DNA of 64,000 bases from positions 50,843,142-50,907,141 of the forward strand of contig OX637394.1 of NCBI GenBank assembly GCA_951799425.1, read 5' to 3'. The notes beneath the pieces were generated by a model. The model was given only the letters and a program-made list of their open reading frames with translations, was not told the origin of the DNA and made no database searches. Origin of the DNA: Ilex aquifolium. Lineage: Eukaryota > Streptophyta > Magnoliopsida > Aquifoliales > Aquifoliaceae. Shown here piece by piece: positions 27,217-57,525 of the stretch (positions are counted from its first letter, which is position 1; every line of letters starts with the position of its first letter). Both the position numbers and the translations under genes were made by a program.

Positions 27217-27394
27217 CCATCTTACCCCCACCTCTTCTCTGCCCTCTTCTACTAAACATCACCCCCACTTCTTCTCTGCCCCCTCTATGCTCTCGCTCAC
27301 TTCACACCCACAGCGCACAACACACAAATACACACTCATCACCCACACTCACCCACACACAAATCGCACACACACACAAACAAACCCAGACCCA
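26002..27394. other. Upstream of transporter; Helitron-like motif and microsatellites
   Basis: Contains the likely promoter and 5' leader of the transporter (minus strand, 26002 onward). Later, a possible Helitron 5' end begins at 26765 (A then TCTATAATATAAAACAGGAC, followed by GCCGATCCAACGGCC), with no matching 3' end found. CT/GT microsatellites lie at 27023-27062 and CT/CA at 27180-27215. The Athila element is inserted at 27394/27395 next to a CA-rich tract. Confidence 0.4.
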
Positions 27395-28978
27395 TGATTA
27401 GCACTCAAAAATAGCATATTGTTACGCTCTTTTTGGACTAATTATACTTTGATGGAGTTTAAATGATGATATTTTAGGTTCTAAAGTGAAGGAAAGTCCA
27501 AAGGCATCCAAGAAATACATTTGAGGGACAAATGCCGAATTAACGCAAGACCAAGGGAGCAATATCAGGAGAATGCAAAGAATGAAGGACAACGTGTAAT
27601 AAAAGCATTTGAAAAATCAGCATGCATGCAACCACCGTCCATTTGCCCACTTGCCCACTTGCCCACTTGCATTCTTAAGCTTATAAATAGGCTGCTCCTT
27701 CTGCATTTCAAAGGGATCTGAAGGTGGAATCGGTGGAAAAACCAAGAGAGGAACTAAGAGTTAGGAGAGATTTTAGAAGAGTTTTTAGAGAGCAAAATTT
27801 CTTTCATCTTTTGTAGTTTCCATTTCAATTCATGTATTGAAGATTTTATGCTTATGTTCTTATGGTAAGAGTTCTTTCTTATAATTGTCTTTTCTTTATA
27901 GCTTTTATATTTACTTGCTTATATAAATATAATGGAAGGCTGAGCCTCCTCTACTAAGTGTTTTCTTTTATGTTTTTATTATCTCTTGGTTGTGAATTAA
28001 ACACCAAGTAGTTAGTGTTTTTTCTTTTATGTATTTTCATCTCTTGGTTGTGAATTAAACACCAAGTATTTATTGCTTTCTTTTAATTTAAGTATTGTTT
28101 TCTTTTACTTCCATTGTTGGAGCTTCCTTCTTCCCCTTAGAGGAGTGAAACTCTTCCACTTTTCTAGAGCTTTACCAAAGCCGTGAAGGGTGGAATGTGA
28201 TTCACTATTCTTTGTCGAAGATCGGCTCTTTGTTTAGCTATTTTACTTTAAAGCATTTCACTTCTAGTGCTTGAGCATTTTACTTTGTAACACCTTTTGG
28301 GGATGAGTACCATTCATCATTCTAGCTTTACCATAGCTATGAAGGGTGAGTAGTCCTCATTCACTCTTTGGGAAGGGATGATAGATATGTAAAAGATTAA
28401 TCCGGACATTATGTTTGTGTATCACCTTTATGCTTAAATGTTCTATACTCCACTTGATTTTTGGGTGATTGAATGCACCTAGCAAAGTAAAGGTACTTTG
28501 TATAATCAACGGATCTTTCTATGATAAATGGATGACTCCTACATGGAAAGATCCATTGATTCAAGGCAAGTACCCTAACTAACTCTTCATGACAAAATTT
28601 CAATGTCCACCATTATTGCACTTCATTCCTATCTTCCGATTAATTTGCCGTTGACACGGGAGTTAATTGAGTTATAAAGCATAAACATAATGCACCGGAT
28701 AATCAACTACATATTCTGATTCCCGAACCAAAGAGTGTTTGTTACATTTAATCATCTTATATTTTGTCTAGAAAAATACCCATTGGAAAGAATTTTACAT
28801 TCTATCCAAAACTTCCCACAACTTCAAAATCATAATATTTCCAGTTACAAGTCTTTCTCACTATTTACTTCAAAGAACACCAACCATAGTTCCCTGAGGA
28901 TTCGACTCTGGACTCAAACCAGATTATTACTACAACTTGACCGCCTGCACTTGGGTGTACACATTTCGGATCAAGTCA
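27395..28978 (+). repeat. LTR1 of Athila element
   Basis: Starts TGATTAGCACTC and ends GGATCAAGTCA; 1584 bp. It contains a TATA-like CTTATAAATAGGC at about 27679. It has the same length and nearly the same sequence as inverted LTR2. An 80-95 aa open frame near the end recurs in all three LTRs but looks incidental. Confidence 0.9.
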
Positions 28979-28984
28979 AGTTTT

Positions 28985-29002
28985 TGGCGCCGTTGCCGGG
29001 GA
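28985..29002 (+). other. Primer-binding site, tRNA-Asp
   Basis: TGGCGCCGTTGCCGGGGA, 6 bp after LTR1, is the perfect complement of the 3' end (18 nt including CCA) of plant tRNA-Asp(GUC). This primer is typical of Athila elements. Confidence 0.85.
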
Positions 29003-29108
29003 ATCATAAAAGGTGTTTTTTTTAGAAAAAAGTGAAAAAAAAAAAAAAAAAACCTCTCTTTTAGTATATATTTTTGCCTTATTGTGAACACATTTGTTTT
29101 TTTTTTTT

Positions 29109-29873
29109 ATGACTGACATCAAACGTCTCTTTCAAAATTTGCCTGTTGAATCTTCTGGGTCTGTAAATCAACTTGAACCACCTTCACCCAAATCAGAAGC
29201 CGATTCTTGTAACTTCAATATGGCAAATATTGATAGGCAGGGTGAAGATCATGTGAGAGAGGGGGAAGTACCCAACATTCGAACATTGCGGGATTACTTA
29301 CATCCCACAAGGAATAATGTCCCCTCTTGTTTTATTTTTCCTGAAAATGCTCCCCTCTTTACTGTAAAGCCGGGGACAGTGCATTTATTGCCCGTGTTTC
29401 ATGGATTGGATACAGAAAATCCGTATCTGCATATCAAAGACTTCGAAGAAGTGTGTGGAACATTTCAAGACAATTCTGAATTGACAAAAATGAAATTGTT
29501 TTCTTTCTCTTTGAGGGATAAAGCCAAACAATGGTTACATTCTTTAAAATCTCTTTCAATCCCTAATTGGCAGGCTCTACAGAATGAATTTTTCAGAAAA
29601 TTCTTTCCTCTGCACCGCACTAATACACTCAAAAGACAAATCATGAATTTTTCGATCAAAGAAGGGGAAACTTTTTATCAAAGCTGGGAGAGATTCAAAG
29701 ATCTTCTCCAATCTTGTCCACACCATGCTTTTGAAAATTGGACTTTGGTAGGATTTTTCTATGACTCCTTGCCCACTAGGTTACGACAGTTTGTCGAAAT
29801 GATGGCTCAAGGAGAGTTCATGGGAAAAAGTCCGGAGGAGGCATTCAATTTTTTTGATACCATATCAAAAACT
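29109..29873 (+). pseudogene. gag: Athila gag, truncated by inverted LTR
   Basis: The 255 remaining codons begin MTDIKRLFQNLP. The retrotransposon Gag domain is clear: FHGLDTENPYLHIKDFEEVC, FSLRDKAKQWLHSL, then FFRKFFPLHRTNTLKRQI and GETFYQSWERFKDLLQSCPH, ending near GFFYDSLPTRLRQFVE and SPEEAFNFFDTIS. The frame stops at 29874-29876 only because the inverted LTR2 begins there with TGA. Everything after (rest of gag including any zinc knuckle, protease) is absent from this copy, so it cannot give a full Gag-Pol. It is the only gag in the composite. Confidence 0.85.
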
Positions 29874-31457
29874 TGACTTGATCCGAAATGTGTACACCCA
29901 AGTGCAGGCGGTCAAGTTGTAGTAATAATCTGGTTTGAGTCCAGAGTCGAATCCTCAGGGAACTATGGTTGGTGTTCTTTGAAGTAAATAGTGAGAAAGA
30001 CTTGTAACTGGAAATATTATGATTTTGAAGTTGTGGGAAGTTTTGGATAGAATGTAAAATTCTTTCCAATGGGTATTTTTCTAGACAAAATATAAGATGA
30101 TTAAATGTAACAAACACTCTTTGGTTCGGGAATCAGAATATGTAGTTGATTATCCGGTGCATTATGTTTATGCTTTATAACTCAATTAACTCCCGTGTCA
30201 ACGGCAAATTAATCGGAAGATAGGAATGAAGTGCAATAATGGTGGACATTGAAATTTTGTCATGAAGAGTTAGTTAGGGTACTTGCCTTGAATCAATGGA
30301 TCTTTCCATGTAGGAGTCATCCATTTATCATAGAAAGATCCGTTGATTATACAAAGTACCTTTACTTTGCTAGGTGCATTCAATCACTCAAAAATCAAGT
30401 GGAGTATAGAACATTTAAGCATAAAGGTGATACACAAACATAATGTCCGGATTAATCTTTTACATATCTATCATCCCTTCCCAAAGAGTGAATGAGGACT
30501 ACTCACCCTTCATAGCTATGGTAAAGCTAGAATGATGAATGGTACTCATCCCCAAAAGGTGTTACAAAGTAAAATGCTCAAGCACTAGAAGTGAAATGCT
30601 TTAAAGTAAAATAGCTAAACAAAGAGCCGATCTTCGACAAAGAATAGTGAATCACATTCCACCCTTCACGGCTTTGGTAAAGCTCTAGAAAAGTGGAAGA
30701 GTTTCACTCCTCTAAGGGGAAGAAGGAAGCTCCAACAATGGAAGTAAAAGAAAACAATACTTAAATTAAAAGAAAGCAATAAATACTTGGTGTTTAATTC
30801 ACAACCAAGAGATGAAAATACATAAAAGAAAAAACACTAACTACTTGGTGTTTAATTCACAACCAAGAGATAATAAAAACATAAAAGAAAACACTTAGTA
30901 GAGGAGGCTCAGCCTTCCATTATATTTATATAAGCAAGTAAATATAAAAGCTATAAAGAAAAGACAATTATAAGAAAGAACTCTTACCATAAGAACATAA
31001 GCATAAAATCTTCAATACATGAATTGAAATGGAAACTACAAAAGATGAAAGAAATTTTGCTCTCTAAAAACTCTTCTAAAATCTCTCCTAACTCTTAGTT
31101 CCTCTCTTGGTTTTTCCACCGATTCCACCTTCAGATCCCTTTGAAATGCAGAAGGAGCAGCCTATTTATAAGCTTAAGAATGCAAGTGGGCAAGTGGGCA
31201 AGTGGGCAAATGGACGGTGGTTGCATGCATGCTGATTTTTCAAATGCTTTTATTACACGTTGTTCTTCATTCTTTGCATTCTCCTGATATTGCTCCCTTG
31301 GTCTTGCGTTAATTCGGCATTTGTCCCTCAAATGTATTTCTTGGATGCCTTTGGACTTTCCTTCACTTTAGAACCTAAAATATCATCATTTAAACTCCAT
31401 CAAAGTATAATTAGTCCCAAAAGAGCGTAACAATATGCTATTTTTGAGTGCTAATCA
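29874..31457 (-). repeat. LTR2, inverted
   Basis: Exact inverted LTR from TGACTTGATCC to GAGTGCTAATCA, 1584 bp, retaining both terminal dinucleotides. On the minus strand it is the 3' LTR of the inverted half: the polypurine tract (31458-31470) abuts its outer side. The left terminus is joined base-exactly to gag. Confidence 0.9.
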
Positions 31458-33342: not shown

Positions 33343-33768
33343 CTAATCCGAGTCATCGCTTGGATCTATGTCATTATCAGTGACCCTTCCAACTTCTTGT
33401 CGCACATAACTTGTAAGTCCTGGACTGGCATAAGATGGCGTGTCAGGATAATCCTTACTCAGCCCATACACTATCCAGTTTAATCGATCGGTTGCACGAC
33501 CCGAAATTGGTTCAGAACACTGATTATGTTTTTTCATATGAAATATCCTGCCACAATGGTAACAAGCACCCAGTCGTTTGGAACGACGATGTTTAGTAAA
33601 ATTGCTTCTGCCACACAATGGTTGTTGTTGTTTCTCTCGGATCTCAATTTTTCTCACATCCCTTGCTTTTCTCATTATCACAGCATGCACATCAGATGGG
33701 AAAATGCGTAGAACTCCTAGACTAAACCAAAAAAGTTTAGGATCCATGCTTGCTAAGACTAAAGACAT
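33343..33768 (-). CDS. Carlavirus-NABP-like Cys/Arg-rich protein, copy 2, left arm
   Basis: 141 aa (134 if the second ATG is used). It is the mirror copy of 41737-42162 and identical in predicted protein. Order: LFWFSLGVLRIFPSDVHAVI, basic stretch, CGRSNFTKHRRSKRLG, CX2CX4HX6C cluster (C-YH-C-GRIF-H-MKKHNQ-C), then EPISGRATDRLNW and GLSKDYPDTP, acidic tail ending DPSDDSD. The layout resembles the cysteine-rich nucleic-acid-binding protein of carlaviruses. See the right-arm entry for discussion. Expression from this orientation would need the cassette's own promoter or LTR2 read-through. Confidence 0.6.
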   Translation of the reverse strand: MSLVLASMDPKLFWFSLGVLRIFPSDVHAVIMRKARDVRKIEIREKQQQPLCGRSNFTKHRRSKRLGACYHCGRIFHMKKHNQCSEPISGRATDRLNWIVYGLSKDYPDTPSYASPGLTSYVRQEVGRVTDNDIDPSDDSD

Positions 33769-34309
33769 TCTATCTGGATTTTTAACGTCTGCCAGTCACA
33801 AAGACAGTTGAAGCTGCATCCGATGTGATCATGAAATACATGTACAAATACTTAAAAGAACACGATCCAGAAAAAATAAATTTTTTTTTTTTTTTTTTTT
33901 TTTTTTCAGATCTAAAACTAAAATTACAAATACGAAACTAGAGAAAGTATACCAAAATACAAGCGGAAGGAAGAAGATTTAGGATGAAACAAACAAATTA
34001 ACGAAGAAGGAATAAACCCAGAATACATAGGATTGAGGAGGATTATTTGGCAAATTATCAGATCTTACTGTAACAGCAATTACAACATAGTCATTGGAGG
34101 GCATAGCAAATTCACAAGGAATCTTATAAAGACAAATAGCCATGAGAATCACAAGCTGTAGATATCAAATTTCAAATATATATATAAATGAAATTACAAA
34201 CAAGCAATACTTACAACACTAGCACTAGTGGGCTAGTGGAGATAAGGTTGTAAGGTACAGATCTGTTCATCTGCCGAAACCTACAAACAAAATACAACAA
34301 TTACTCAAC

Positions 34310-34441
34310 TCAAGGAATATCTGGGTTTCTCTGGAAACTCCTCATCCTAAGTGTGAGAACACAAAGAGCACCCAGGTACACATACAAACATATAAGACAA
34401 ATTATTAAACAAAAGACTGGATCGTCGGCGTATATGGTCAT
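34310..34441 (-). CDS. Small one-membrane-segment ORF, copy 2, left arm
   Basis: 43 aa; mirror of 41064-41195. It starts MTIYADDPVFCLIICL, has a hydrophobic segment of about 20 residues, then RMRSFQRNPDIP. It is related to the 48 aa ORF of the other cassette (shared DDP, LY, R-F-NPD-P). Function unknown. Confidence 0.4.
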   Translation of the reverse strand: MTIYADDPVFCLIICLICLYVYLGALCVLTLRMRSFQRNPDIP

Positions 34442-35061
34442 GGATTTACAGGGGGTGAGTTGTTTTTACAGAGAACAGAAAGAACGACGACGAAGAAGAA
34501 GAGAAGAAAAAGAAAGAGAAGAAGAAGAAAAAGAGAAAAGGGGGGAACCAACACCGGTGATGGTGGAAGAAAAAGAAAAAGGTGGAAGGCCTAATAAAGG
34601 CATTCCTCAGAATTTTTTTTTTTTTTTTTTTTTAATATAAGAAAGTGTCGGCAGGAGCTGGCAGGCAGAAGAAAAGAAAAAAAAGAAGAAGAAAGGCAGT
34701 GGGAGGCCCCCCCCCTTTTTTTTTCTAACTTTACTTTCGGCAGTGTCGGCAGGCGCAATAATAGCAGCAGGCGCAATAATGGTGCATAGTAATAAAAATG
34801 AGTAGGGTAAGAGAACACCTCGTACTTGAGCTTTGACCCATGCACCGATATCTGAAACTAGGAACAACAAAATTATACAACAAAAGAAAGTGACATGCAT
34901 TAAAAATAACATTAATAAATAAAAGCAACTATACACTATTGTAGAAGGATTTTAGCAAAAACGTTCAAACGTGTTGTAACGTTCGAACGTCGAATCAAAA
35001 ATTTTTACAGACTCGGACCTTCAGCTTTCATTCCCAACCTCAGTACACTTTTCCACAGAGG

Positions 35062-35472
35062 TCAATCTGATTCCCCCTCCGTATCTGTGTAAAATGGACA
35101 ACCAGTAACTCTCCCAACTTCCTCTCTCACAAATCGGTTAAGCACAGTACCGGAATAGCATGGCGTATCAGGGTAATCCTTACTCAGCCCATGTTTTATC
35201 CAGTTTAATCGATCAGTTGCGCGACCGGAAATTGGTTCAGAACATTTGTTGTATCTTTTCTCATGAAAGTATCTGCCACACTGTTTACAGGCACCAAGTC
35301 GTGTAGCACGACGACGTTTAGAATAACTGCTTCGGCCACAGAGGGGTTTCGCTTGTCTTTTTTTGATTTCAGCCTTCCTTACTAATCTTGCTTTTCTCAT
35401 GATCATGGTATGTACATCAGATGGAAAAGTACGTAGGACTCCTAGACTAAACCAAAAAAGATTTACATCCAT
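35062..35472 (-). CDS. Carlavirus-NABP-like Cys/Arg-rich protein, copy 1, left arm
   Basis: 136 aa from ATG at 35472; mirror of 40032-40442 with identical predicted protein. It begins MDVNLFWFSLGVLRTFPSDV, then CGRSSYSKRRRATRLG and the CX2CX4HX6C cluster (C-KQ-C-GRYF-H-EKRYNK-C), EPISGRATDRLNW and GLSKDYPDTP. See the right-arm entry. Confidence 0.6.
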   Translation of the reverse strand: MDVNLFWFSLGVLRTFPSDVHTMIMRKARLVRKAEIKKRQAKPLCGRSSYSKRRRATRLGACKQCGRYFHEKRYNKCSEPISGRATDRLNWIKHGLSKDYPDTPCYSGTVLNRFVREEVGRVTGCPFYTDTEGESD

Positions 35473-35812
35473 GATTGCTACTTTATAACCCACTATCTGG
35501 TTCTTTTACGTCTTCCAGTCACAAAGACGATCAAAACTGACCCACAGATATTATCATCAATACAAGGTACATAATCTGAACAGATACAACAATAAAAACA
35601 AAAAAATTTACAGAAAATTTTACGGGTTCAACCTGTGCAGATCAACTACTGTAAACTGCAGATCAACTACTGTAAACTGTAGATCTCACCCCCCAACCTA
35701 GACTGAACATTGTCCCCAATGTTTCGAGTTTTTCGGTTTGTAGAGCTTGAATACGCAGTTAACTGTGGAGATCTGTTCAATCGCCGATGACCTATACCAA
35801 AAAAAACAGAGA

Positions 35813-35959
35813 TTAAGCATCTTTGGGGTGGTCTGGGTTTTCATTGGGACAAAAACCCTTGATCATCAGTGCGACCCGAAGAAGAACAGCCATAAGTAAA
35901 TAATACAAACAAATGTAGATCATGAGAAGGAGGATAGGGTCATCGAAAAATGCAGACAT
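35813..35959 (-). CDS. Small one-membrane-segment ORF, copy 1, left arm
   Basis: 48 aa; mirror of 39545-39691 with one change (Val for Ala in the LLRVALM stretch). It starts MSAFFDDPILLLMIYICLYY. The open frame extends further upstream through pyrimidine-rich leader, but the ATG of MSAFF matches the paralogous ORF. Confidence 0.4.
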   Translation of the reverse strand: MSAFFDDPILLLMIYICLYYLLMAVLLRVALMIKGFCPNENPDHPKDA

Positions 35960-36105
35960 GGTACTGTTATGGGTTGGATCGTGGTACAGAAGACCAGATG
36001 CAGTGGAGAAGAAGAAGAAAAGAGAAGAAAAAGAAGAAGAAAAAGAAAAGAAAAGAGTAAAGGCGGTGGGGAAAAGAAAAAGGAAAAAAAAAAACGATGG
36101 GAGCC

Positions 36106-37083
36106 TTATAAAGGCAGTCCATCGTGTCGGGTGTCTGATTGACCCGACCCTTTTTTGTGTCGGCAAGCGTAATCTCCGGAGTGATTTCCGGAGATACTTT
36201 CTGGATCCATAAAAAAAATGGTCTCCACATTTTGGACAAAATTCTCCACAAAGGGTTTTAATCGCTGACCATTGACGGTAAAAATGTTACCGTTTGATGG
36301 GTTCTCCACTTCCACTGCCCCATGTTCAAATACCTTTTTAACAATGTATGGTCCAGTCCATCTTGATTTCAACTTACCAGGAAATAGGCGAAGTCTCGAA
36401 TTGAAAAGTAGAACCTTTTGATCAGGTTCAAAAGATTTTCGCACTATGTTCTTGTCATGAAAAATTTTCATCCTGGTTTTTGCAATCTTAGCATTTTCAT
36501 ATGCTTCATTTCTCAATTCCTCCAATTCATTAATCTGAAGCTTCCGTGACAGTCCAGCCTTGTCTAAGTCAAAATTCATTGCTTTAATAGCCCAGTATGC
36601 CCTATGTTCCAATTCCACAGGCAAGTGACATGGCTTTCCATAGACTAATCGATAGGGAGACATGCCCAAAATTGTTTTAAAAGCAGTTCGGTATGCCCAG
36701 AGCGCATCAGTTAGTCTTAATGACCAATCTTTGCGATCTGGGTTCACCGTTTTTTCCAAAATTAATTTGATCTCCCGATTAGCTAACTCAGCTTGTCCAC
36801 TGGTCTGTGGATGATAAGGGGTTGCAATTTTGTGAAAAATCAAGTATTTTTTCATTAAATTCCAGAAGGGACGATTGCAAAAATGAGAACCCCCATCACT
36901 TATAATGGATTTTGGAATTCCAAACCGAGATAAAATATTTTCTTTTAAAAACTTGATCACTGTTTGATGATCATTATTTCGGCATGGAATTGCTTCAACC
37001 CATTTGGATACATAGTCTACGGCTATTAAAATGTATAGATAGCCAAAGGAGGGGGAAATGGTCTCATAAAATCGATACCCCAA
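36106..37083 (-). pseudogene. Athila integrase core and C-terminus
   Basis: Integrase catalytic core with the DDE triad visible: Asp in [16 protein letters not shown], Asp in [10 protein letters not shown], Glu in [14 protein letters not shown]. After it come [20 protein letters not shown] and the C-terminal [14 protein letters not shown] and VNGQRLKPF. The frame overlaps the RT/RNase H/zinc-finger frame (37026-38624) in a different phase: a one-base loss in the C-rich run near 37055 has broken pol just before the core. From 36871 downward the DNA is repeated in the right arm. Confidence 0.8.
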
Positions 37084-38624
37084 CAGTCAAAAATTTCGAT
37101 CACCAAAATTGGGTTTAAGGGCATCATGTTTCTTTTTGAAATGTTTCCCAACCTTTGACATCTATCGCAAGTTACGCAAAAAGCATGGACATCTTGGAAA
37201 AGTGTGGGCCAGTAAAATCCACACTGCAAGATTTTTGCAGCGGTTTTTCGAGATGAAAAATGACCACCGCATGCTTCTGAATGACAAAATGTTATTACCT
37301 GTCTACTTTCCTGAGCGGGGATGCAACGTCTTATGATCTGATCCTTACAGTACTTGAATACGTAGGGATCTTCCCAAAAGAAATTGCGGACCTCCCTCAG
37401 AAACTTCTTTTTGTCCATGGGAGTGAAAAATGGAGGAAGTGTTCCGGTAGCAAGGAAATTAGCAATATCAGCGTACCATGGGGTCTCATCAATCCTGAAT
37501 AGTTGTTCATCAGGGAATTTTTCATTGATTGGCAGTCCATCCTCATGAAATTCATAAGTTAATCTTGACAGATGATCTGCCACCACATTTTCCACACCCT
37601 TTTTGTCCTTAATGACTAAATCAAATTCTTGGAGCAAGAGGATCCATCTCAAGAGCCTTGGTTTGGCATCTTTTTTTGTAAGCAAAAATTTCAGTGCTGC
37701 ATGGTCAGTAAATACAGTAACAGAAGAACCAACAAGATAAGATCGAAATTTTTCCAATGCAAATACTACAGCAAGTAATTCCTTTTCAGTTGTTGAGTAA
37801 TTCATTTGGGCATCATTTAAAGTTTTACTTGCATAGTAAATCACATGTGGCTTCTTATCTTTTCTTTGTCCCAAAACAGCACATACAGCATAGTCACTAG
37901 TATCACACATCAATTCAAAGGGTAGAGTCCAGTCAGGAGGTTGCATTATTGGGGCAGAAATTAACATGCCTTTGAGTTTGTCAAAGGATTTTTGGCACGC
38001 TTCATTCCAGTCGAAAATGACATCCTGACTCAAAAGATGACACATAGGTTTTGCTATGGTGCTGAAGTCTTTTATGAACCTTCTGTAGAATCCTGCATGA
38101 CCTAAGAATGATCGAACATCCTTCACAACCCTAGGAGCAGGAAGATTCCTTATCAAATCAATTTTTGCTTTATCAACTTTCATGCCTTCTGACGACACAA
38201 TGTGACCCAAGACAATGCCTTGATTCACCATGAAATGACATTTCTCCCAGTTAAGCACCAGATTTGCCTCTTTGCATCTCATCAAAACTTTTTCTAGGTT
38301 AACTAGACACAAATCAAATGAGTCACCATATACTGAGAAATCATCCATGAAGATTTCCAAAAATTTTTCTACCATGTCACTGAACAAGCTCAGCATACAT
38401 CTTTGAAATGTTGCAGGAGCGTTACAAAGTCCGAATGGCATCCTTTTGAATGCAAAAGTGCCAAATGGACATGTGAATGTGGTCTTTTCTTGGTCATTCA
38501 GAGCTATCTCAATTTGATTGTATCCGGAATACCCATCCAGGAAACAGTAAAATTCATGGCCTGCTATTCTCTCGAGGACTTGGTCAAGGAAGGGAAGAGG
38601 AAAATGGTCTTTTCTAGTCACCAT
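37026..38624 (-). pseudogene. pol: Athila RT, RNase H and integrase zinc finger (pol fragment)
   Basis: Starts within RT at [20 protein letters not shown] and lacks the RT N-terminus and the protease. RT motifs: [32 protein letters not shown] (active site), [10 protein letters not shown]. RNase [51 protein letters not shown]. Integrase HHCC finger: [11 protein letters not shown] then CVTCDRC. The first codons (MV, 38619-38624) belong to the snap-back junction, not to native RT. The C-terminus is frameshifted near 37055. It is the unique spacer of the inverted repeat, present once. Confidence 0.85.
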
Positions 38625-38639
38625 TTTCCTCTTCCCTTC
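38589..38639. repeat. 20-bp perfect hairpin at inversion junction
   Basis: Arms 38589-38608 and 38620-38639 are perfect inverted copies (GAAGGGAAGAGGAAAATGGT and its complement) around an 11-base loop. The left arm and loop are native RT sequence (antisense). The right arm copies the left arm back and then passes into integrase sequence at CCCTTCTGG. Confidence 0.92.
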
Positions 38640-39398
38640 TGGAATTTAATGAAAAAATACTTGATTTTTCACAAAATTGCAACCCCTTATCATCCACAGA
38701 CCAGTGGACAAGCTGAGTTAGCTAATCGGGAGATCAAATTAATTTTGGAAAAAACGGTGAACCCAGATCGCAAAGATTGGTCATTAAGACTAACTGATGC
38801 GCTCTGGGCATACCGAACTGCTTTTAAAACAATTTTGGGCTTGTCTCCCTATCGATTAGTCTATGGAAAGCCATGTCACTTGCCTGTGGAATTGGAACAT
38901 AGGGCATACTGGGCTATTAAAGCAATGAATTTTGACTTAGACAAGGCTGGACTGTCACGGAAGCTTCAGATTAATGAATTGGAGGAATTGAGAAATGAAG
39001 CATATGAAAATGCTAAGATTGCAAAAATCAGGATGAAAATTTTTCATGACAAGAACATAGTGCGAAAATCTTTTGAACCTGATCAAAAAGTTCTACTTTT
39101 CAATTCGAGACTTCGCCTATTTCCTGGTAAGTTGAAATCAAGATGAACTGGACCATACATTGTTAAAAAGGTATTTGAACATGGGGCAGTGGAAGTGGAG
39201 AACCCATCAAACGGTAACATTTTTACCGTCAATGGTCAGCGATTAAAACCCTTTGTGGAGAATTTTGTCCAAAATGTGGAGACCATTTTTTTTATGGATC
39301 CAGAAAGTATTTCCGGAAATCACTCCGGAGATTACGCTTGCCGACACAAAAAAGGGTCGGGTCAATCAGACACCCGACACGATGGACTGCCTTTATAA
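38633..39398 (+). pseudogene. Integrase 3' fragment, right arm
   Basis: In-frame integrase from [20 protein letters not shown] through [14 protein letters not shown] to LFPGKLKSR, then a TGA (39144-39146) where the left arm has TGG, so the C-terminus is interrupted; the rest ([21 protein letters not shown]) stays open to 39398. The first catalytic Asp and the zinc finger are absent. The fragment starts exactly at the snap-back junction. Confidence 0.8.
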
Positions 39399-39402
39399 GG
39401 CT
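39389..39402 (+). promoter_or_regulatory. TATA-like box of accessory cassette 1
   Basis: GCCTTTATAAGGC just after the end of the integrase frame, followed by a pyrimidine-rich leader (39410-39500). The equivalent place in cassette 2 reads GCCTTTATTAGGC at about 40904-40916. It is a candidate internal promoter. Confidence 0.45.
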
Positions 39403-39544
39403 CCCATCGTTTTTTTTTTTCCTTTTTCTTTTCCCCACCGCCTTTACTCTTTTCTTTTCTTTTTCTTCTTCTTTTTCTTCTCTTTTCTTCTTCTTCTCCA
39501 CTGCATCTGGTCTTCTGTACCACGATCCAACCCATAACAGTACC

Positions 39545-39691
39545 ATGTCTGCATTTTTCGATGACCCTATCCTCCTTCTCATGATCTACATTTGTTTGTA
39601 TTATTTACTTATGGCTGTTCTTCTTCGGGCCGCACTGATGATCAAGGGTTTTTGTCCCAATGAAAACCCAGACCACCCCAAAGATGCTTAA
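39545..39691 (+). CDS. Small one-membrane-segment ORF, cassette 1
   Basis: 48 aa starting MSAFFDDPILLLMIYICLYY; one hydrophobic segment of about 24 residues, then a short polar tail (KGFCPNENPDHPKDA). It lies between the candidate TATA box and a TTTTTTTTGGTATAG tract that looks like a 3' splice site. The paralogous 43 aa ORF in cassette 2 keeps DDP, LY and R-F-NPD-P at equivalent places although the DNA around has diverged, which supports real coding. No family recognised. It might be a membrane-anchored accessory protein, or an upstream ORF removed by splicing. Confidence 0.4.
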   Translation: MSAFFDDPILLLMIYICLYYLLMAVLLRAALMIKGFCPNENPDHPKDA

Positions 39692-40031
39692 TCTCTGTTT
39701 TTTTTGGTATAGGTCATCGGCGATTGAACAGATCTCCACAGTTAACTGCGTATTCAAGCTCTACAAACCGAAAAACTCGAAACATTGGGGACAATGTTCA
39801 GTCTAGGTTGGGGGGTGAGATCTACAGTTTACAGTAGTTGATCTGCAGTTTACAGTAGTTGATCTGCACAGGTTGAACCCGTAAAATTTTCTGTAAATTT
39901 TTTTGTTTTTATTGTTGTATCTGTTCAGATTATGTACCTTGTATTGATGATAATATCTGTGGGTCAGTTTTGATCGTCTTTGTGACTGGAAGACGTAAAA
40001 GAACCAGATAGTGGGTTATAAAGTAGCAATC

Positions 40032-40442
40032 ATGGATGTAAATCTTTTTTGGTTTAGTCTAGGAGTCCTACGTACTTTTCCATCTGATGTACATACCATG
40101 ATCATGAGAAAAGCAAGATTAGTAAGGAAGGCTGAAATCAAAAAAAGACAAGCGAAACCCCTCTGTGGCCGAAGCAGTTATTCTAAACGTCGTCGTGCTA
40201 CACGACTTGGTGCCTGTAAACAGTGTGGCAGATACTTTCATGAGAAAAGATACAACAAATGTTCTGAACCAATTTCCGGTCGCGCAACTGATCGATTAAA
40301 CTGGATAAAACATGGGCTGAGTAAGGATTACCCTGATACGCCATGCTATTCCGGTACTGTGCTTAACCGATTTGTGAGAGAGGAAGTTGGGAGAGTTACT
40401 GGTTGTCCATTTTACACAGATACGGAGGGGGAATCAGATTGA
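40032..40442 (+). CDS. Carlavirus-NABP-like Cys/Arg-rich protein, cassette 1
   Basis: 136 aa. N-terminal hydrophobic-mixed part (LFWFSLGVLRTFPSDVHTMI), Lys/Arg-rich middle (MRKARLVRKAEIKKRQ), then CGRSSYSKRRRATRLG followed by a CX2CX4HX6C cluster, EPISGRATDRLNWIKHGLSK and DYPDTP, and an acidic tail (DTEGESD). A GRSSY plus arginine run directly before a small zinc-finger-like cluster, then an IS motif and a G-hydrophobic-Pro end, is the layout I know from the 3'-terminal cysteine-rich nucleic-acid-binding proteins of carlaviruses, several of which suppress RNA silencing or affect host transcription. The similarity is seen by eye and needs a profile search. The ATG at 40032 is preferred because the paralog has its own ATG (41758) at the same position; upstream codons are open but lack ATG. 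Confidence 0.65.
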   Translation: MDVNLFWFSLGVLRTFPSDVHTMIMRKARLVRKAEIKKRQAKPLCGRSSYSKRRRATRLGACKQCGRYFHEKRYNKCSEPISGRATDRLNWIKHGLSKDYPDTPCYSGTVLNRFVREEVGRVTGCPFYTDTEGESD

Positions 40443-40903
40443 CCTCTGTGGAAAAGTGTACTGAGGTTGGGAATGAAAGCTGAAGGTCCGAGTCTGTAAA
40501 AATTTTTGATTCGACGTTCGAACGTTACAACACGTTTGAACGTTTTTGCTAAAATCCTTCTACAATAGTGTATAGTTGCTTTTATTTATTAATGTTATTT
40601 TTAATGCATGTCACTTTCTTTTGTTGTATAATTTTGTTGTTCCTAGTTTCAGATATCGGTGCATGGGTCAAAGCTCAAGTACGAGGTGTTCTCTTACCCT
40701 ACTCATTTTTATTACTATGCACCATTATTGCGCCTGCTGCTATTATTGCGCCTGCCGACACTGCCGAAAGTAAAGTTAGAAAAAAAAAGGGGGGGGGCCT
40801 CCCACTGCCTTTCTTCTTCTTTTTTTTCTTTTCTTCTGCCTGCCAGCTCCTGCCGACACTTTCTTATATTAAAAAAAAAAAAAAAAAAAAAATTCTGAGG
40901 AAT

Positions 40904-40916
40904 GCCTTTATTAGGC
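40904..40916 (+). promoter_or_regulatory. TATA-like box of accessory cassette 2
   Basis: GCCTTTATTAGGC, paralogous to the GCCTTTATAAGGC of cassette 1 and also followed by a pyrimidine-rich leader. The TATTA version would be a weaker TATA box. Confidence 0.35.
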
Positions 40917-41063
40917 CTTCCACCTTTTTCTTTTTCTTCCACCATCACCGGTGTTGGTTCCCCCCTTTTCTCTTTTTCTTCTTCTTCTCTTTCTTTTTCT
41001 TCTCTTCTTCTTCGTCGTCGTTCTTTCTGTTCTCTGTAAAAACAACTCACCCCCTGTAAATCC

Positions 41064-41195
41064 ATGACCATATACGCCGACGATCCAGTCTTTTGTTTAA
41101 TAATTTGTCTTATATGTTTGTATGTGTACCTGGGTGCTCTTTGTGTTCTCACACTTAGGATGAGGAGTTTCCAGAGAAACCCAGATATTCCTTGA
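41064..41195 (+). CDS. Small one-membrane-segment ORF, cassette 2
   Basis: 43 aa starting MTIYADDPVFCLIICL; hydrophobic segment through LYVYLGALCVL, tail RMRSFQRNPDIP. Paralogous to 39545-39691 by position and by conserved residues. It is followed by a TTTTGTTTGTAG acceptor-like tract and then GTTTCGGCAGATGAACAGAT, matching GTCATCGGCGATTGAACAGA of cassette 1. Confidence 0.4.
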   Translation: MTIYADDPVFCLIICLICLYVYLGALCVLTLRMRSFQRNPDIP

Positions 41196-41736
41196 GTTGA
41201 GTAATTGTTGTATTTTGTTTGTAGGTTTCGGCAGATGAACAGATCTGTACCTTACAACCTTATCTCCACTAGCCCACTAGTGCTAGTGTTGTAAGTATTG
41301 CTTGTTTGTAATTTCATTTATATATATATTTGAAATTTGATATCTACAGCTTGTGATTCTCATGGCTATTTGTCTTTATAAGATTCCTTGTGAATTTGCT
41401 ATGCCCTCCAATGACTATGTTGTAATTGCTGTTACAGTAAGATCTGATAATTTGCCAAATAATCCTCCTCAATCCTATGTATTCTGGGTTTATTCCTTCT
41501 TCGTTAATTTGTTTGTTTCATCCTAAATCTTCTTCCTTCCGCTTGTATTTTGGTATACTTTCTCTAGTTTCGTATTTGTAATTTTAGTTTTAGATCTGAA
41601 AAAAAAAAAAAAAAAAAAAAAAAATTTATTTTTTCTGGATCGTGTTCTTTTAAGTATTTGTACATGTATTTCATGATCACATCGGATGCAGCTTCAACTG
41701 TCTTTGTGACTGGCAGACGTTAAAAATCCAGATAGA

Positions 41737-42162
41737 ATGTCTTTAGTCTTAGCAAGCATGGATCCTAAACTTTTTTGGTTTAGTCTAGGAGTTCTACGCA
41801 TTTTCCCATCTGATGTGCATGCTGTGATAATGAGAAAAGCAAGGGATGTGAGAAAAATTGAGATCCGAGAGAAACAACAACAACCATTGTGTGGCAGAAG
41901 CAATTTTACTAAACATCGTCGTTCCAAACGACTGGGTGCTTGTTACCATTGTGGCAGGATATTTCATATGAAAAAACATAATCAGTGTTCTGAACCAATT
42001 TCGGGTCGTGCAACCGATCGATTAAACTGGATAGTGTATGGGCTGAGTAAGGATTATCCTGACACGCCATCTTATGCCAGTCCAGGACTTACAAGTTATG
42101 TGCGACAAGAAGTTGGAAGGGTCACTGATAATGACATAGATCCAAGCGATGACTCGGATTAG
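41737..42162 (+). CDS. Carlavirus-NABP-like Cys/Arg-rich protein, cassette 2
   Basis: 141 aa from ATG 41737, or 134 aa from ATG 41758 (the position shared with cassette 1). By eye about two thirds of residues match the cassette 1 protein. Strictly kept parts: LFWFSLGVLR-FPSDVH, IMRKAR, PLCGRS, RLGAC, CGR-FH, C-SEPISGRATDRLNW, GLSKDYPDTP, EVGRVT. The metal-ligand spacing CX2CX4HX6C is the same although neighbouring residues changed, which suggests selection on a zinc finger. The acidic tail differs (DPSDDSD). Confidence 0.65.
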   Translation: MSLVLASMDPKLFWFSLGVLRIFPSDVHAVIMRKARDVRKIEIREKQQQPLCGRSNFTKHRRSKRLGACYHCGRIFHMKKHNQCSEPISGRATDRLNWIVYGLSKDYPDTPSYASPGLTSYVRQEVGRVTDNDIDPSDDSD

Positions 42163-42275
42163 ATTTTGACTATAAAAACAAAGCTGTGGAAAAATGTGTT
42201 TTGGAATGAAGGTTAAGGGTCTGAACTCTTTTGTAAAATAGTTTTGTACAAAGTTTTGTTGTTGAAATAAAAATG

Positions 42276-42541
42276 TGGGCCGAGTAAGGAACGTCCCGAA
42301 CTACCAACTAACAGTGTAGGTAGGGATTTGATCCTGAGACGCCATAAATTTCCAAGTTCAATTTGTGCATTTTATCTTCTTTCAATTTTCATAGATAAAT
42401 GAGTATGTGGGCTGAGTAAGGAATGTCCTAAAATGCCAACCTGTAGTGTGGGTAGGGATTTTATCCTGAGACGCCATAGTTTTTCAAGTTTAATTGGTGC
42501 ATCTAGTCTTCTTTCAATTTTCATAGATAAATGAGTATGTT
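42276..42541 (+). repeat. Two 132-bp tandem repeats after cassette 2
   Basis: Units start at 42276 and 42408 (TGGGCYGAGTAAGGAAYGTC ... ATAGATAAATGAGTATG). Each begins with GGGCTGAGTAAGGA-like sequence that also encodes GLSKD in both NABP-like ORFs, so they may derive from the 3' coding end of an earlier ORF copy. Mirrored in the left arm near 32964-33229. Confidence 0.75.
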
Positions 42542-44033
42542 TATAATTTTGAATTTTATTTCTTCTTCTTTAAAAAAAAAAAAAACTCACTTCCTTGAAA
42601 AATGGTATTTTCTCTATGCTTAAATGTCAAATGTATATTGCTATTTGTTATTCTTAAGATACAGAATGACCAGACTCGAAAATAGAATTGGTATATAACC
42701 GACATTCCATGAAAAACCTGACATTACCAGTGGAGATGATAAAGAATACCATGGTAAGTTTTGAGCCTTATCATACTTTTGAGAGATAATTAAGATTTAT
42801 TCAAGTAAGGTCTTTCACTCTCTATTTTTGAATAATCTCATTAAATTTGCTTTGATTGAAGCAAGTAAGGTAATCTGTTGACATATCCCCAAGAAATCTG
42901 TTCATACGACACATACATGTTCACATACTTGAGAAAGGATTTTAGGCCATCTTTGATTTGATATTGAGCCTTAGCCATTTTTTTCTGCAAAATTATTTCC
43001 CTAGTCAGCCATGTTTGAGCCCTCAATGTATGATTTCTTCTTTGATAAACCCAAATATTTACCAAGCCACAAGAAAACATACTGGACACACCATTGCTAT
43101 CTAATTTTCTTGCACATTCTTATAAATCAATATGACACAGAAATGCAAAGAAATGGGGAAAACTGTGGAGATTACTTTTCGATGACAAGGAGGAGAATCA
43201 ATGGGAACAAATAAAAAAAAAAAAAAATCATTTCTGGGCAAAATGTCGAAAAGCTAGAAAGAAGTGTGTTACATTACAGAATGAAAGGATAGCTTTTGAA
43301 AATCATTGACGTCATTTCATTAGCCACTGACCTCTGGCCACGCTACAACCTATGAAAAGCCCTAATTGATCTCAAGTCTGTTACATGCGTGTGTTGTCAA
43401 TCAAAATTGGGGTATGGAAAATAGTATTTCTTTAAATTGCATCAATATTCCTTCATGAGATTATGCCAAACATGATTAGTTTGTTTCCTTAAACTTCACT
43501 CCCTTCCTAATTGTGCATGTGATTTTTCGATTGGCCACCTTCTGATCACATGCCCCGTGAGAGACAAGTCACTATAATCGGAGTGAATTTTTGCTGAGAG
43601 CATTCTACGAGAGGTTTGTGAAATCGAAACTATCCATGGAAGGTAGTAAAGTGGAGTGTTTGTTATATAACAATTCTTGTTGCTAGAATGATCATTCTTA
43701 CTACATAGGGAATTTCAAATACCAATATAACAAGTGTTTATTTTTGCATATATTACGTACCAATGACAGAGAAGTGTTTTATTTTGCTAAAAAAAAAAAA
43801 AAAAATTCGGCGTCTCAGCTATCATGGTGCTAATGCATATACACATTTTTTCAAATGGAGTTTGTAGGTAGCTTCACTGAAAACCTTCACGAGACAAAAC
43901 TCGTCCACTAGGAATCACCTAGGGGTTTAACGACATGTTGCATGTGCTAAATGCAACCGGATACCTACGAAAAAGGCATTAGGAATAAATTTCCATTTCA
44001 TTACCATCTTATTGCTAGAGACCAGCAATGTTT
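42542..44033 (+). other. 3' untranslated internal region, right arm
   Basis: AT-rich and non-coding, with A/T homopolymers; mirrored in 31471-32963. Nothing further recognised. Confidence 0.6.
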
Positions 44034-44046
44034 AGGTTGGGGAGTG
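44034..44046 (+). other. Polypurine tract
   Basis: AGGTTGGGGAGTG directly before the LTR3 TG, the expected second-strand primer. The same sequence abuts LTR2 on the minus strand. It is missing before LTR1, as expected for a 5' LTR. Confidence 0.75.
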
Positions 44047-45622
44047 TGATTAGCACTCAAAAATAGCATATTGTTACGCTCTTTTTGGACTAATTATACT
44101 TTGATGGAGTTTAAATGATGATATTTTAGGTTCTAAAGTGAAGGAAAGTCCAAAGGCATCCAAGAAATACATTTGAGGGACAAATGCCGAATTAACGCAA
44201 GACCAAGGGAGCAATATCAGGAGAATGCAAAGAATGAAGGACAAAGTGTAATAAAAGCATTTGAAAAATCAGCATGCATGCAACCACCGTCCATTTGCCC
44301 ACTTGCCCACTTGCCCACTTAAGCTTATAAATAGGCTGCTCCTTCTGCATTTCAAAGGGATCTGAAGGTGGAATCGGTGGAAAAACCAAGAGAGGAACTA
44401 AGAGTTAGGAGAGATTTTAGAAGAGTTTTTAGAGAGCAAAATTTCTTTCATCTTTTGTAGTTTCCATTTCAATTCATGTATTGAAGATTTTATGTTTATG
44501 TTCTTATGGTAAGAGTTCTTTCTTATAATTGTCTTTTCTTTATAGCTTTTATATTTACTTGCTTATATAAATATAATGGAAGGCTGAGCCTCCTCTACTA
44601 AGTGTTTTCTTTTATGTTTTTATTATATCTTGGTTGTGAATTAAACACCAAGTAGTTAGTGTTTTTTCTTTTATGTATTTTCATCTCTTGGTTGTGAATT
44701 AAACACCAAGTATTTATTGCTTTCTTTTAATTTAAGTATTGTTTTCTTTTACTTCCATTGTTGGAGCTTCCTTCTTCCCCTTAGAGGAGTGAAACTCTTC
44801 CACTTTTCTAGAGCTTTACCAAAGCCGTGAAGGGTGGAATGTGATTCACTATTCTTTGTCGAAGATCGGCTCTTTGTTTAGCTATTTTACTTTAAAGCAT
44901 TTCACTTCTAGTGCTTGAGCATTTTACTTTGTAACACCTTTTGGGGATGAGTACCATTCATCATTCTAGCTTTACCATAGCTATGAAGGGTGAGTAGTCC
45001 TCATTCACTCTTTGGGAAGGGATGATAGATATGTAAAAGATTAATCCGGACATTATGTTTGTGTATCACCTTTATGCTTAAATGTTCTATACTCCACTTG
45101 ATTTTTGGGTGATTGAATGCACCTAGCAAAGTAAAGGTACTTTGTATAATCAACGGATCTTTCTATGATAAATGGATGACTCCTACATGGAAAGATCTAT
45201 TGATTCAAGGCAAGTACCCTAACTAACTCTTCATGACAAAATTTCAATGTCCACCATTATTGCACTTCATTCCTATCTTCCGATTAATTTGCCGTTGACA
45301 CGGGAGTTAATTGAGTTATAAAGCATAAACATAATGCACCGGATAATCAACTACATATTCTGATTCCCGAACCAAAGAGTGTTTGTTACATTTAATCATC
45401 TTATATTTTGTCTAGAAAAATACCCATTGGAAAGAATTTTACATTCTATCCAAAACTTCCCACAACTTCAAAATCATAATATTTCCAGTTACAAGTCTTT
45501 CTCACTATTTACTTCAAAGAACACCAACCATAGTTCCCTGAGGATTCGACTCTGGACTCAAACCAGATTATTACTACAACTTGACCGCCTGCACTTAGGT
45601 GTACACATTTCGGATCAAGTCA
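44047..45622 (+). repeat. LTR3 of Athila element
   Basis: 1576 bp, TGATTAGCACTC...GGATCAAGTCA. It differs from LTR1 by an 8-bp loss (GCATTCTT, near 44320) and a few substitutions, for example CTTGGG to CTTAGG near the end. Confidence 0.9.
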
Positions 45623-45924
45623 AGACCAAGAAAAAAAAATTTCGCAAAGTATCGGATAAGAAGACGAAAGACTATATTTCCTACCCGTAGGGTAGAGTGA
45701 ACACCCCTATTGTTAATAAAGCAGTGTTTGTAATTAAGTTCATGGAACCCTCTTTTGTTGGGGCTAAAGTTCATTGAACTATGCAAGAAAGTTATTTGCA
45801 TATTGCTGCTAGGCTGTTTAAGTTATTAACATGAACGAAAACGTGTGGAGATTATGAACACAAGTGAAGTGGGTCTGGTGATGGTGAGGCTTGTGGCCAG
45901 TTATAGTGAAATTTTGTCTCTTAA
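45623..45924. other. Right flank of Athila element
   Basis: Starts AGACCAAG. It contains an imperfect CTACCCGTAGGGTAG hairpin (45682-45696). No gene recognised. Confidence 0.4.
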
Positions 45925-47811: not shown

Positions 47812-49453
47812 TAGAGGTGACAATCGAGTCGCGTCGTGTCAAGTTTGTGTTGAGTCATTGCGGGTTTGTGTTGAACATTAATCAAACCTAACTTAACTCA
47901 TTTAACTAATCGTGTCGTGTCGAATTGACCTGTTTATTCGTATCGTGTTCGTGTTCGTATTCGTATTCGTATTCGTATTGACTCACATAAATTTTGAATA
48001 AAAAATTTAACGCTAATATTCTATTTTCACTTAATTGAACTCATGTTCATACTTTTTCTATAAACTAAAAATTAACTTAAATAAATATAATAATAATAAT
48101 GATTAAAAATATTTTTTATATAATAATATGTCAGTGCTTAATAAATAATTACAAATAATTAATATTTTGGGAGAATTACACCTAGACTCCCTGATGTTTG
48201 TCACTTAATCACTCAGACCCCCTGACATTTGAAATATTACACACAGACCCCTTAAAGTTTATACTCGCGTAACACTTAGACCCCTGCTGTAAATATATCC
48301 ATTAATAAATTACACCTAGACCCCCTTGAAGTTTGTACGCATATAATACTTAGACTTCTTAAATTTAAAATGTTATACTTAGACAAAAAATACTCAAATC
48401 AAAGATAGAATATCAAATATTTTAAATTTTACAACCAAAATTTATGTTCTATTGTATCATTTATTGAAATAAAAATTCAAATTTTTCTTAAAAATTTGTA
48501 ATTAATATACAATTATACTATCCATTGGAACAAAACTAAAAAATCAAACAAGGGTCTAAGTCATTCTTAATAGAACATGAATTTTACAACTAAAATTCAT
48601 GTTCTATTATGTCATTTATTTAAATAAAATCAAAAATAAAAATCTATTTTTAAAAAAAAAAACCATAATTAGTATACAATTATAATATCTATTAGAATAA
48701 AACTAAAAAATTAAACAAGGGGTCAAATTGTAATGAACACACTATCTTTTATCTTCAATTGGGATAGTTTGGTATTTTAATTTAGTCATTTAAACGACCA
48801 AATTAAATTTCAATAGACAATATAATTGTATAATAATTACTATTTTTTAAGAAAAATTTGAATTTGAATTTTATATTTTATTTCAATAAATGATACAATA
48901 GAACATGCATTTTAATTGTAAAATTTAAAATATTTGATATTCTATCTTTGATTGAAATATTTTTGGTCTAAGTATAACATTTTAAACTTAAGGGGTCTAA
49001 GTAATATATGTTTATAAACTTAAGAGTGTCTGAATATAATTTATTAATGGATATATTTACAACATGGGTCTAAGTGTTATGCGCGTACAAATTTTAGGGG
49101 GTCTGAGTGTAATACTTCAAATGTCAGGGGGTCTGAGTGATTAAGTGACAAACTTTAGGGGGTGTGAATGTAATTCTCCCTAACATTTTATATCTATAAT
49201 ACTAGTTAAAATGTTAATTTCGTATTAATTTCGTGTTACCATACAAACGAGAAAATAAAGAAAATGTTTATTCTTAAATAAACGGGTTGATGGTGTCAAT
49301 TTTGGGTCTGACGGGTTGAACTGAATATGAACCGTTTATATTTCGTGTTCGTGTTTGTGTGTCAGGTCATTTTCGAGTTCGTGTTGAGTTATAATCAAAT
49401 TCGTGTCGAGTTCGAATCGTGTCATCGTGTTGAGTCGAAAATTTCCACCTTTA
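47812..49453. mobile_element. hAT-type non-autonomous element
   Basis: Ends TAGAGGTGACAA and, inverted, TAAAGGTGGAAA, with a perfect 8-bp target duplication GCTAAGAT (47804-47811, 49454-49461), diagnostic of hAT. The subterminal DNA is full of CGTGTTCGTGT-type repeats. It is interrupted by the MITE at 48169-49180. No transposase. Confidence 0.8.
48169..49180. mobile_element. Long-TIR foldback MITE (MULE-like), innermost
   Basis: 1012 bp. Ends GGGAGAATTACA / inverted GGGAGAATTACA with arms of about 350-400 bp that pair almost throughout (CACTTAATCACTCAGACCCC, AAATATATCCATTAATAAAT, ATAGAATATCAAATATTTTA). The 9-bp duplication TAATATTTT (48160-48168) / TAACATTTT (49181-49189) has one mismatch. 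Long arms plus 9-bp duplication suggest a Mutator-like origin. There is an internal second copy of part of the left arm near 48540-48720. Confidence 0.8.
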
Positions 49454-57465: not shown

Positions 57466-57517
57466 AGCACAAGTGAGCAGTTTCTTGGGATTGTAGAGGG
57501 GGGAACCCCATGTTTTG

Positions 57518-57523: not shown

Positions 57524-57525
57524 GA

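What the first reader, a model, noticed from the sequence alone, without database searches (positions are those of the whole stretch)
40032..42162. An Athila retrotransposon encodes two proteins resembling the carlavirus nucleic-acid-binding protein
Two ORFs (136 and 141 aa) downstream of integrase share, in order, a basic region, CGRS followed by an arginine run, a CX2CX4HX6C cluster, SEPISGRATDRLNW and GLSKDYPDTP. I know this layout from the 3'-terminal cysteine-rich proteins of carlaviruses, which bind nucleic acid and in several cases suppress RNA silencing. Athila elements normally carry an env-like ORF or nothing here. A captured virus-like protein would be an unusual accessory gene, possibly one that counters host silencing of the element. 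The ORFs and motifs are read directly; homology and function are inference.
Basis: partly seen in the sequence, partly recalled or inferred. Interest (0 to 1): 0.95.

Follow-up and report, generated by a model that had tools for sequence, protein, structure and literature searches.

The report
Retrotransposon carrying plant-RNA-virus accessory genes
A plant jumping gene of the Athila type carries two small genes related to a protein with which many plant RNA viruses bind nucleic acid and, in several cases, blunt the plant's RNA-silencing defence, which hints that such elements borrowed a viral counter-defence.

Summary
Both ORFs match Pfam Viral_NABP above its cut-off (E 8.8e-11, 2.8e-11) and Carla_C4. 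A profile of element-type proteins alone finds prunevirus and vitivirus NABPs among 5.8 billion proteins. Against a profile of three pruneviruses and one unnamed protein it scores E 1.2e-24. The gene lies downstream of integrase in an Athila-like element. In the host genome, 150 of 150 scored hits (best ones only, two of them the window's) are at least 98% identical and stop-free. In 20 older copies, 18 have integrase upstream and 5 have a stop in the NABP match. dN/dS is 0.21-0.27 for 8 stop-free of 12 older copies. A second type lies just behind the integrase of another Athila-like element, L001; its relatives include Populus, Acer, Xanthoceras and Orobanche proteins. The two window ORFs are a tandem duplication whose unit includes a 43-48 aa hydrophobic ORF. 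Unsettled: direction of transfer (AU tests undecided), one capture or two, and silencing suppression itself. No paper that I opened links NABP to retrotransposons.

The parts
27395..28986 (+). 5' LTR of the composite element (3' boundary uncertain by a few bases)
   Evidence: LTR copies 99.2-99.8% identical at 29866-31457(-) and 44047-45624(+)
28985..29002 (+). primer binding site, tRNA-Asp type
   Evidence: read; complementarity to tRNA-Asp is recalled; Athila-lineage elements Calypso/Diaspora use tRNA-Asp (PMC1142308, passages)
29088..29876 (+). start of gag ORF, cut by the minus-strand LTR
   Evidence: PF03732 Retrotrans_gag E 3.3e-18
29866..31457 (-). LTR of the inverted arm
33343..33768 (-). 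second copy of NABP ORF2
35062..35472 (-). second copy of NABP ORF1
36106..37083 (-). integrase core and C-terminal part
   Evidence: PF00665 E 4.7e-14
37026..38624 (-). RT, RNase H, integrase zinc-binding domain
   Evidence: PF00078, PF17917, PF17921
38630..39146 (+). integrase C-terminal part, plus arm
   Evidence: inverted repeat start; ORF 38403-39146
39545..39691 (+). 48-aa hydrophobic (TM-like) ORF of cassette 1
   Evidence: hydrophobic by reading, no TM predictor run
39711..39714 (+). acceptor-like AG|GT after a T-rich run, cassette 1
   Evidence: aligned with cassette 2
39785..39816 (+). TTGGGGACAATG...TTGGGGGGT motif, PPT-like; a similar motif lies near L001:2601
40032..40442 (+). NABP-like ORF1, 136 aa
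   Evidence: PF05515 E 8.8e-11, PF01623 E 9.3e-6
41064..41195 (+). 43-aa hydrophobic (TM-like) ORF of cassette 2
41223..41226 (+). acceptor-like AG|GT, cassette 2
41758..42162 (+). NABP-like ORF2, 134 aa from the conserved ATG (141 aa from 41737)
   Evidence: PF05515 E 2.8e-11, PF01623 E 1.3e-4
42273..42540 (+). two 132-bp tandem repeats, each with a stretch resembling GLSK-x-x-P-x-x-P
   Evidence: homology to the NABP end is suggestive only (best score equals the best of 300 shuffles)
44034..44046 (+). polypurine-type tract before the 3' LTR
   Evidence: read
44047..45624 (+). 3' LTR

Best explanation
The element is an Athila-lineage Ty3/gypsy retrotransposon with accessory genes between pol and the 3' LTR that encode homologues of the 3'-terminal nucleic-acid-binding (cysteine-rich) protein of flexiviruses. 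Shown: homology, a fixed place behind integrase, many open copies, a signal of purifying selection, and a tandem duplication of a unit 'hydrophobic mini-ORF, acceptor-like site, NABP'. Inferred: the gene was captured from a Betaflexiviridae-like RNA virus, plausibly when the element's RT switched template onto abundant 3' viral RNA. Inferred: it is made from a spliced subgenomic RNA. Inferred: through its Arg-rich/zinc-finger region it binds nucleic acid and protects the element's RNA or cDNA from the host's small-RNA silencing, as several viral NABPs do. My odds: homology 0.97, maintained function 0.93, virus-to-element direction 0.7, silencing suppression as main role 0.5.
For: PF05515/PF01623 above cut-off for both ORFs. 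A profile of 12 element-type sequences finds 18 proteins at E <= 0.1 among 5.8e9, two of them named viral NABPs: apricot vein clearing associated virus (E 5.0e-11) and grapevine virus H (E 7.6e-7). hhalign with A5 (3 pruneviruses plus unnamed P0013): E 1.2e-24 over 121 columns (E for a single comparison). Foldseek in BFVD: 4 hits at E <= 0.001, two named RNA silencing suppressor, one RNA-binding protein, one 15 kDa protein, all of plant flexiviruses (the score includes sequence; model pLDDT 74.3). Own genome: 150 of 150 scored hits at 98% or more without stop; integrase upstream in 15 of 20 loci with 1.5-kb flanks and 18 of 20 further copies. dN/dS 0.21-0.27 against 8 divergent copies, integrase 0.07-0.11 against 7. 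L001 has a Viral_NABP ORF (E 3.3e-8) about 200 nt behind pol. PMC12172455 (passages) reports silencing suppression by CRPs of SPCFV, CVB, PVM and CYVCV.
Against: The trees do not place the element proteins inside viral diversity: AU p 0.38-0.47 for the alternatives, with long branches, 135-183 columns and only four named viruses. NABP evolves faster than integrase. The dN/dS copies were chosen as full-length and stop-free (8 of 12), and 150 were scored because they were the best of 4101 candidates; in the less selected set 5 of 20 NABP matches hold stops. No expression, splicing, RNA-binding or silencing data. Three IMG/VR scans gave no relative. Pfam PF05515 was built on viral proteins (recalled), so an undescribed plant family as source is not excluded. 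One source labels a relative ribosomal protein L37AE/L43A and eL43 chains match weakly.
Confidence: 0.6

Rival explanations
1. The transfer went the other way: flexiviruses took the NABP gene from a plant Athila element or a lost host gene.
For: The family is large: 676 proteins at E <= 0.01, of which 120 are listed, 7 of them named from plants and 4 from viruses, the rest without an organism name. Two deep element groups exist. Tests do not reject the two element types as one clade with viruses outside (p 0.449; 0.379).
Against: NABP hits in BFVD span several virus genera. In plants I saw its place only in Athila-type elements, in the own genome and L001. Element type A is nearer the prunevirus profile (E 1.2e-24, 121 columns) than element type 182 (E 1.8e-11, 60 columns).
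Confidence: 0.2
2. The protein acts mainly inside the element's own cycle (nucleocapsid-like packaging, nuclear import, or a transcription-factor role) and not as a silencing suppressor.
For: Arg-rich plus zinc-finger proteins bind nucleic acid in general; [quoted passage not shown] The finger CX2CX4HX6C resembles the gag knuckle CX2CX4HX4C (recalled).
Against: No zf-CCHC match. Several relatives are listed as RNA silencing suppressors in UniRef/BFVD names, which are names and not tests.
Confidence: 0.35
3. Convergence: a short Arg-rich zinc finger of cellular origin (for instance ribosomal eL43-like) that only resembles NABP.
For: Weak phmmer hits to eL43 chains, E 0.014-0.062; one relative, P0005, is named ribosomal protein L37AE/L43A by a source.
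Against: Collinear match over about 100-120 residues, beyond the finger; no Pfam ribosomal match at E <= 1.
Confidence: 0.03
4. A dead endogenous viral fragment that happens to sit in some copies of the element.
For: Flexivirus-like origin; short ORFs; stops in 5 of 20 older copies.
Against: 150 of 150 scored copies open, omega 0.21-0.27 for 8 divergent copies, constant place in different subfamilies and in another element.
Confidence: 0.02

Closest known systems
Flexivirus 3'-terminal NABP/CRP (PF05515, PF01623): pruneviruses, vitiviruses, carlaviruses, allexiviruses, cherry mottle leaf virus 15 kDa protein
   Same: Basic region, Ser/Ala-Lys-Arg-Arg-rich core ending in R-L-G, Cys/His cluster, and a D-R-L-x-W-(I/V)-K-x-G-x-S-K-like stretch in the same order; small gene near the 3' end
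   Different: DNA-integrated, duplicated, in an LTR retrotransposon; C-terminal part and finger spacing differ
Athila / Calypso / Cyclops / Bagy-2 elements with env-like or other 3' extra ORFs (PMC7264820, PMC1142308, PMC6317226: passages)
   Same: Lineage as far as tested, tRNA-Asp-type PBS, extra sense ORF between pol and 3' LTR
   Different: The passages seen describe env-like ORFs, Athila ORF-1 (pfam03078) or ORFs without matches. The survey in PMC6317226 took only eORFs of at least 250 codons, so ORFs of this size would be missed
Orchid Ty3/gypsy elements with a captured AlkB m6A demethylase (PMC9289625, abstract and passages)
   Same: Plant Gypsy element that fixed an RNA-acting accessory domain of a kind also found in flexiviruses
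   Different: AlkB there is nearest to cellular demethylases, in a Tat/Ogre-type element; the domains named in the passages do not include NABP (its figures and supplements not seen)
Retand elements with antisense extra ORFs (PMC11963269, passages)
   Same: Conserved extra ORF between pol and 3' LTR; authors raise recombination with an unknown virus
   Different: No similarity to known proteins; antisense; different lineage

Membership tests
Viral_NABP (PF05515) | profile score above gathering cut-off (23 bits) | tested here: met
   42.6 and 44.2 bits
Viral_NABP (PF05515) | Arg-rich core next to a Cys/His finger | tested here: met
   C62, C65, H70, C77 and R54, R55 invariant in the 12 aligned sequences
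Viral_NABP (PF05515) | binds nucleic acid | not testable with these tools
   no assay
Viral suppressor of RNA silencing | suppresses silencing in a standard assay | not testable with these tools
   only relatives' names and PMC12172455 passages
Athila lineage | Ty3/gypsy pol order RT-RH-INT, no additional RNase H (unlike Tat), no chromodomain | tested here: met
   Pfam scan of the pol ORFs: RT, RT_RNaseH, H2C2 and rve are the families above cut-off (protease and first part of RT not in the ORF scanned); criterion from PMC6317226
Athila lineage | PBS complementary to tRNA-Asp | tested here: inconclusive
   PBS read; the tRNA 3' end is recalled, not fetched
Athila lineage | RT phylogeny with reference Athila elements | not tested
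   no reference elements in the collections; the name rests on structure and recall
Env-like extra ORF | long ORF with signal peptide/transmembrane helix | tested here: inconclusive
   NABP ORFs are 134-136 aa and not hydrophobic by reading; 43-48 aa hydrophobic mini-ORFs precede them; no TM predictor run
Gag zinc knuckle (CX2CX4HX4C) | zf-CCHC profile match | tested here: not met
   no zf-CCHC match at E <= 1

The most novel reading that the evidence does not exclude
A widespread class of plant Athila-type retrotransposons, in rosids and at least one asterid, carries an RNA-virus-derived counter-silencing gene, captured at least twice (the 136-aa prunevirus-like type and the 145-182-aa type). 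It was later duplicated together with a membrane mini-ORF, so these elements resist host RNAi with a borrowed viral tool.
Probability: 0.35. Interest if true: 0.93.

Novelty: new variant of a known kind. Interest (0 to 1): 0.82.

Why it matters
Extra ORFs of plant LTR retrotransposons mostly lack known relatives, and their origin and function are open (PMC7264820, PMC6317226, PMC11963269, passages). Here one has a clear relative with testable biochemistry. It suggests gene exchange between RNA viruses and retrotransposons and makes 'do retrotransposons carry their own silencing suppressors?' directly testable. Its high copy number also means that genome annotations may list such ORFs as host or viral proteins.

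Tried and rejected
Rejected: convergence with eL43 or CCHC fingers; dead insert. Led nowhere: plasmid records; IMG/VR scans (31, 32 and 38 pattern matches, none a relative); the first fold with 17 sequences (pLDDT 52.7; viral library without a significant hit); PDB fold search, no match; AU tests, undecided. The 132-bp repeats as decayed NABP pieces: best score equals the best of 300 shuffles, left as suggestive. Three papers were not held. The planned control, whether other Athila families of this genome lack NABP, did not complete.

Rows dropped before a count: dN/dS of the NABP used 8 of the 12 older loci L010-L021; L010, L011, L013 and L014 were left out for stops, frame breaks or a missing start. 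Integrase used 7 of the 9 of these loci that have it; L010 and L015 were left out for broken frames. The 20 copies are 20 of the 24 rows that follow the loci; four were passed over without a reason other than number. P0012, P0014 and most of the listed 145-182-aa proteins were left out of the trees.

Full report
Observation. They also lie on the minus strand, because the window holds two inverted arms (29872-36874 and 38630-45624, 99.6% identical) around a single 1.75-kb stretch of pol.

Homology. Pfam: Viral_NABP 42.6 and 44.2 bits (cut-off 23) and Carla_C4 26 and 22.3 bits (cut-off 20.9); no other family above cut-off. In 5.8 billion proteins the ORF1 query finds 10 relatives of 64-82% identity, from ENA and JGI contigs without an organism name; three carry labels of a source, twice 'Viral nucleic acid binding' and once 'ribosomal protein L37AE/L43A'. 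In the tree ORF2 groups with P0007-P0010 (97/90) and ORF1 with P0001, P0002, P0003, P0005 and P0011 (82/92, not starred); P0004 and P0006 are unplaced. So I infer that the duplication is older than this copy. A profile of these 10 plus the two window ORFs (A1) finds 18 proteins at E <= 0.1, two of them named viral NABPs: apricot vein clearing associated virus (E 5.0e-11) and grapevine virus H (E 7.6e-7). A wider profile that includes those viruses finds 676 proteins at E <= 0.01, 120 listed. Among the listed, four are named viruses and seven are named from plants: Populus x canadensis (2), P. alba (2), Xanthoceras, Acer and Orobanche. The plant-named ones belong to a second type, mostly 145-182 aa. 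Profile against profile: type A with A5 (three pruneviruses plus unnamed P0013) E 1.2e-24 over 121 columns; type 182 with A5 E 6.9e-17; type A with type 182 E 1.8e-11 over 60 columns (E for single comparisons).

Fold. With 73 sequences the model reaches pLDDT 74.3. In the viral library 4 matches are at E <= 0.001: cherry mottle leaf virus 15 kDa protein, two proteins named RNA silencing suppressor from pruneviruses, and a grapevine virus D RNA-binding protein. Carlavirus, allexivirus and other NABPs follow at weaker E. Foldseek also scores sequence, so this is not independent; TM-scores are low. PDB: none. The earlier, poorer model gave nothing significant.

Place and copies. The window lies in an 800-Mb genome. 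ORF1 as query gave 4101 first candidates, 150 scored; all 150 are at 98% identity or more and without stops (the best are scored, so this is biased to good copies, and two are the window's own). With a type-182 query the 150 scored reach only 31-37% identity, 7 of 150 with a stop; the 12 loci fetched from them prove to be older type-A copies. So I saw no type-182 element in this genome. Of the 20 loci show integrase within 1.5 kb upstream; two of the 20 are the window itself. Of 20 more copies, 18 show integrase upstream, 20 of 20 have a single NABP match within about 2.4 kb on either side, and 5 of 20 NABP matches hold a stop, as do 8 of the 18 integrase matches. The two-NABP form was seen in 7 of the 8 young loci (L002-L008, not L009). 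Two of the 20 (L035, L041) match at only about 60% identity.

Another element. L001 is a 3.3-kb contig in a bacterial MAG, which I read as plant; its pol is 70-76% identical to the window's. Its pol frame ends at 1594 and a 182-aa ORF at 1799-2344 matches Viral_NABP (E 3.3e-8; Carla_C4 19.8 bits, just under the cut-off). Here the NABP is upstream of the TTGGGGGG motif; in the window it is downstream. With the distant sequences this leaves room for two captures. That the Populus, Acer, Xanthoceras and Orobanche proteins also sit in Athila-type elements is inference; their surroundings were not seen.

Selection. ORF1 against ORF2: dN 0.222, dS 0.807, omega 0.275. Window ORF1 against 8 stop-free full-length copies of 12: omega 0.21-0.27; pooled pN/pS over nine copies 0.25, with 0.145 differences per site in the 250 nt upstream against pS 0.182 and pN 0.046. 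Integrase against 7 copies: 0.07-0.11. These are simple Nei-Gojobori counts on chosen copies, and master-copy amplification means that selection acted on source copies.

Expression anatomy. ORF1 and ORF2 belong to a duplicated unit: T-rich stretch, hydrophobic 48- or 43-aa ORF, TAG|GT, spacer, NABP. I read the TAG|GT as splice acceptors for a subgenomic RNA; this is inference.

Lineage. RT-RNase H-integrase order, no additional RNase H, no chromodomain, a tRNA-Asp-type PBS (the tRNA end recalled) and coding space behind pol fit Athila as described in PMC6317226 (passages). No reference Athila RT was available for a tree.

Direction. Unrooted trees separate type 182 from a group of type A, named viruses and three unnamed proteins (98/97; 100/100, where the vitivirus was left out). 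Holding both element types together costs only 1.4-2.7 log units (p 0.38-0.45). Direction thus rests on distribution: several flexivirus genera on one side, and on the plant side, where I could see the surroundings (own genome and L001), only Athila-type elements.

Literature. Ten searches were made. Eight were aimed at the link. Three gave no paper. Searches list one review, PMC5967125, whose passages name Athila and carlavirus apart. Searches list papers by single or general terms, of which I opened PMC9289625 and PMC11963269 (passages); PMC8616336, which holds all five terms, was not opened. So I found no paper that joins NABP and retrotransposons, in a library that lacks most subscription papers. 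For CRP function I saw passages of PMC12172455 only.

Verdict. Real, conserved, homologous to flexivirus NABP, and a gene of the element. Capture from a virus and counter-silencing are the best reading, not shown.

Noticed in passing
window 27395-45624: Composite element: LTR(+), gag(+), then LTR(-) with pol and NABP(-), then a second arm (+) ending in the 3' LTR. AGACC lies at both outer ends (27388-27392, 45623-45627), possibly one target-site duplication, which would mean that the inverted form arose before integration.
   Followed up: partly
window 39630-43359 and its counterpart at about 32.1-35.9 kb: The 19 substitutions between the inverted arms leave about 3.7 kb of 7 kb without any; gene conversion or assembly collapse could explain it.
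   Followed up: partly
G000:C8:7376428-7381094 (L005, L006, L022): A second head-to-head pair of NABP copies in the genome with different breakpoints, so inverted forms seem to have arisen more than once.
   Followed up: partly
window 29625-29731 (-): Rfam snoR71 match (46.3 bits, cut-off 40) antisense inside the gag ORF.
   Followed up: no
window 54077-57558 (-): LRR receptor kinase gene, kinase domain split between two frames, probably an intron or frameshift.
   Followed up: no
window 48155-49197 and 2143-2547: Related repeats, partly inverted, of 78-86% identity, possibly a small DNA transposon.
   Followed up: no
L035, L041: More divergent NABP subfamily (about 60% identity); in L041 the NABP match begins about 480 nt behind the integrase match.
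   Followed up: no
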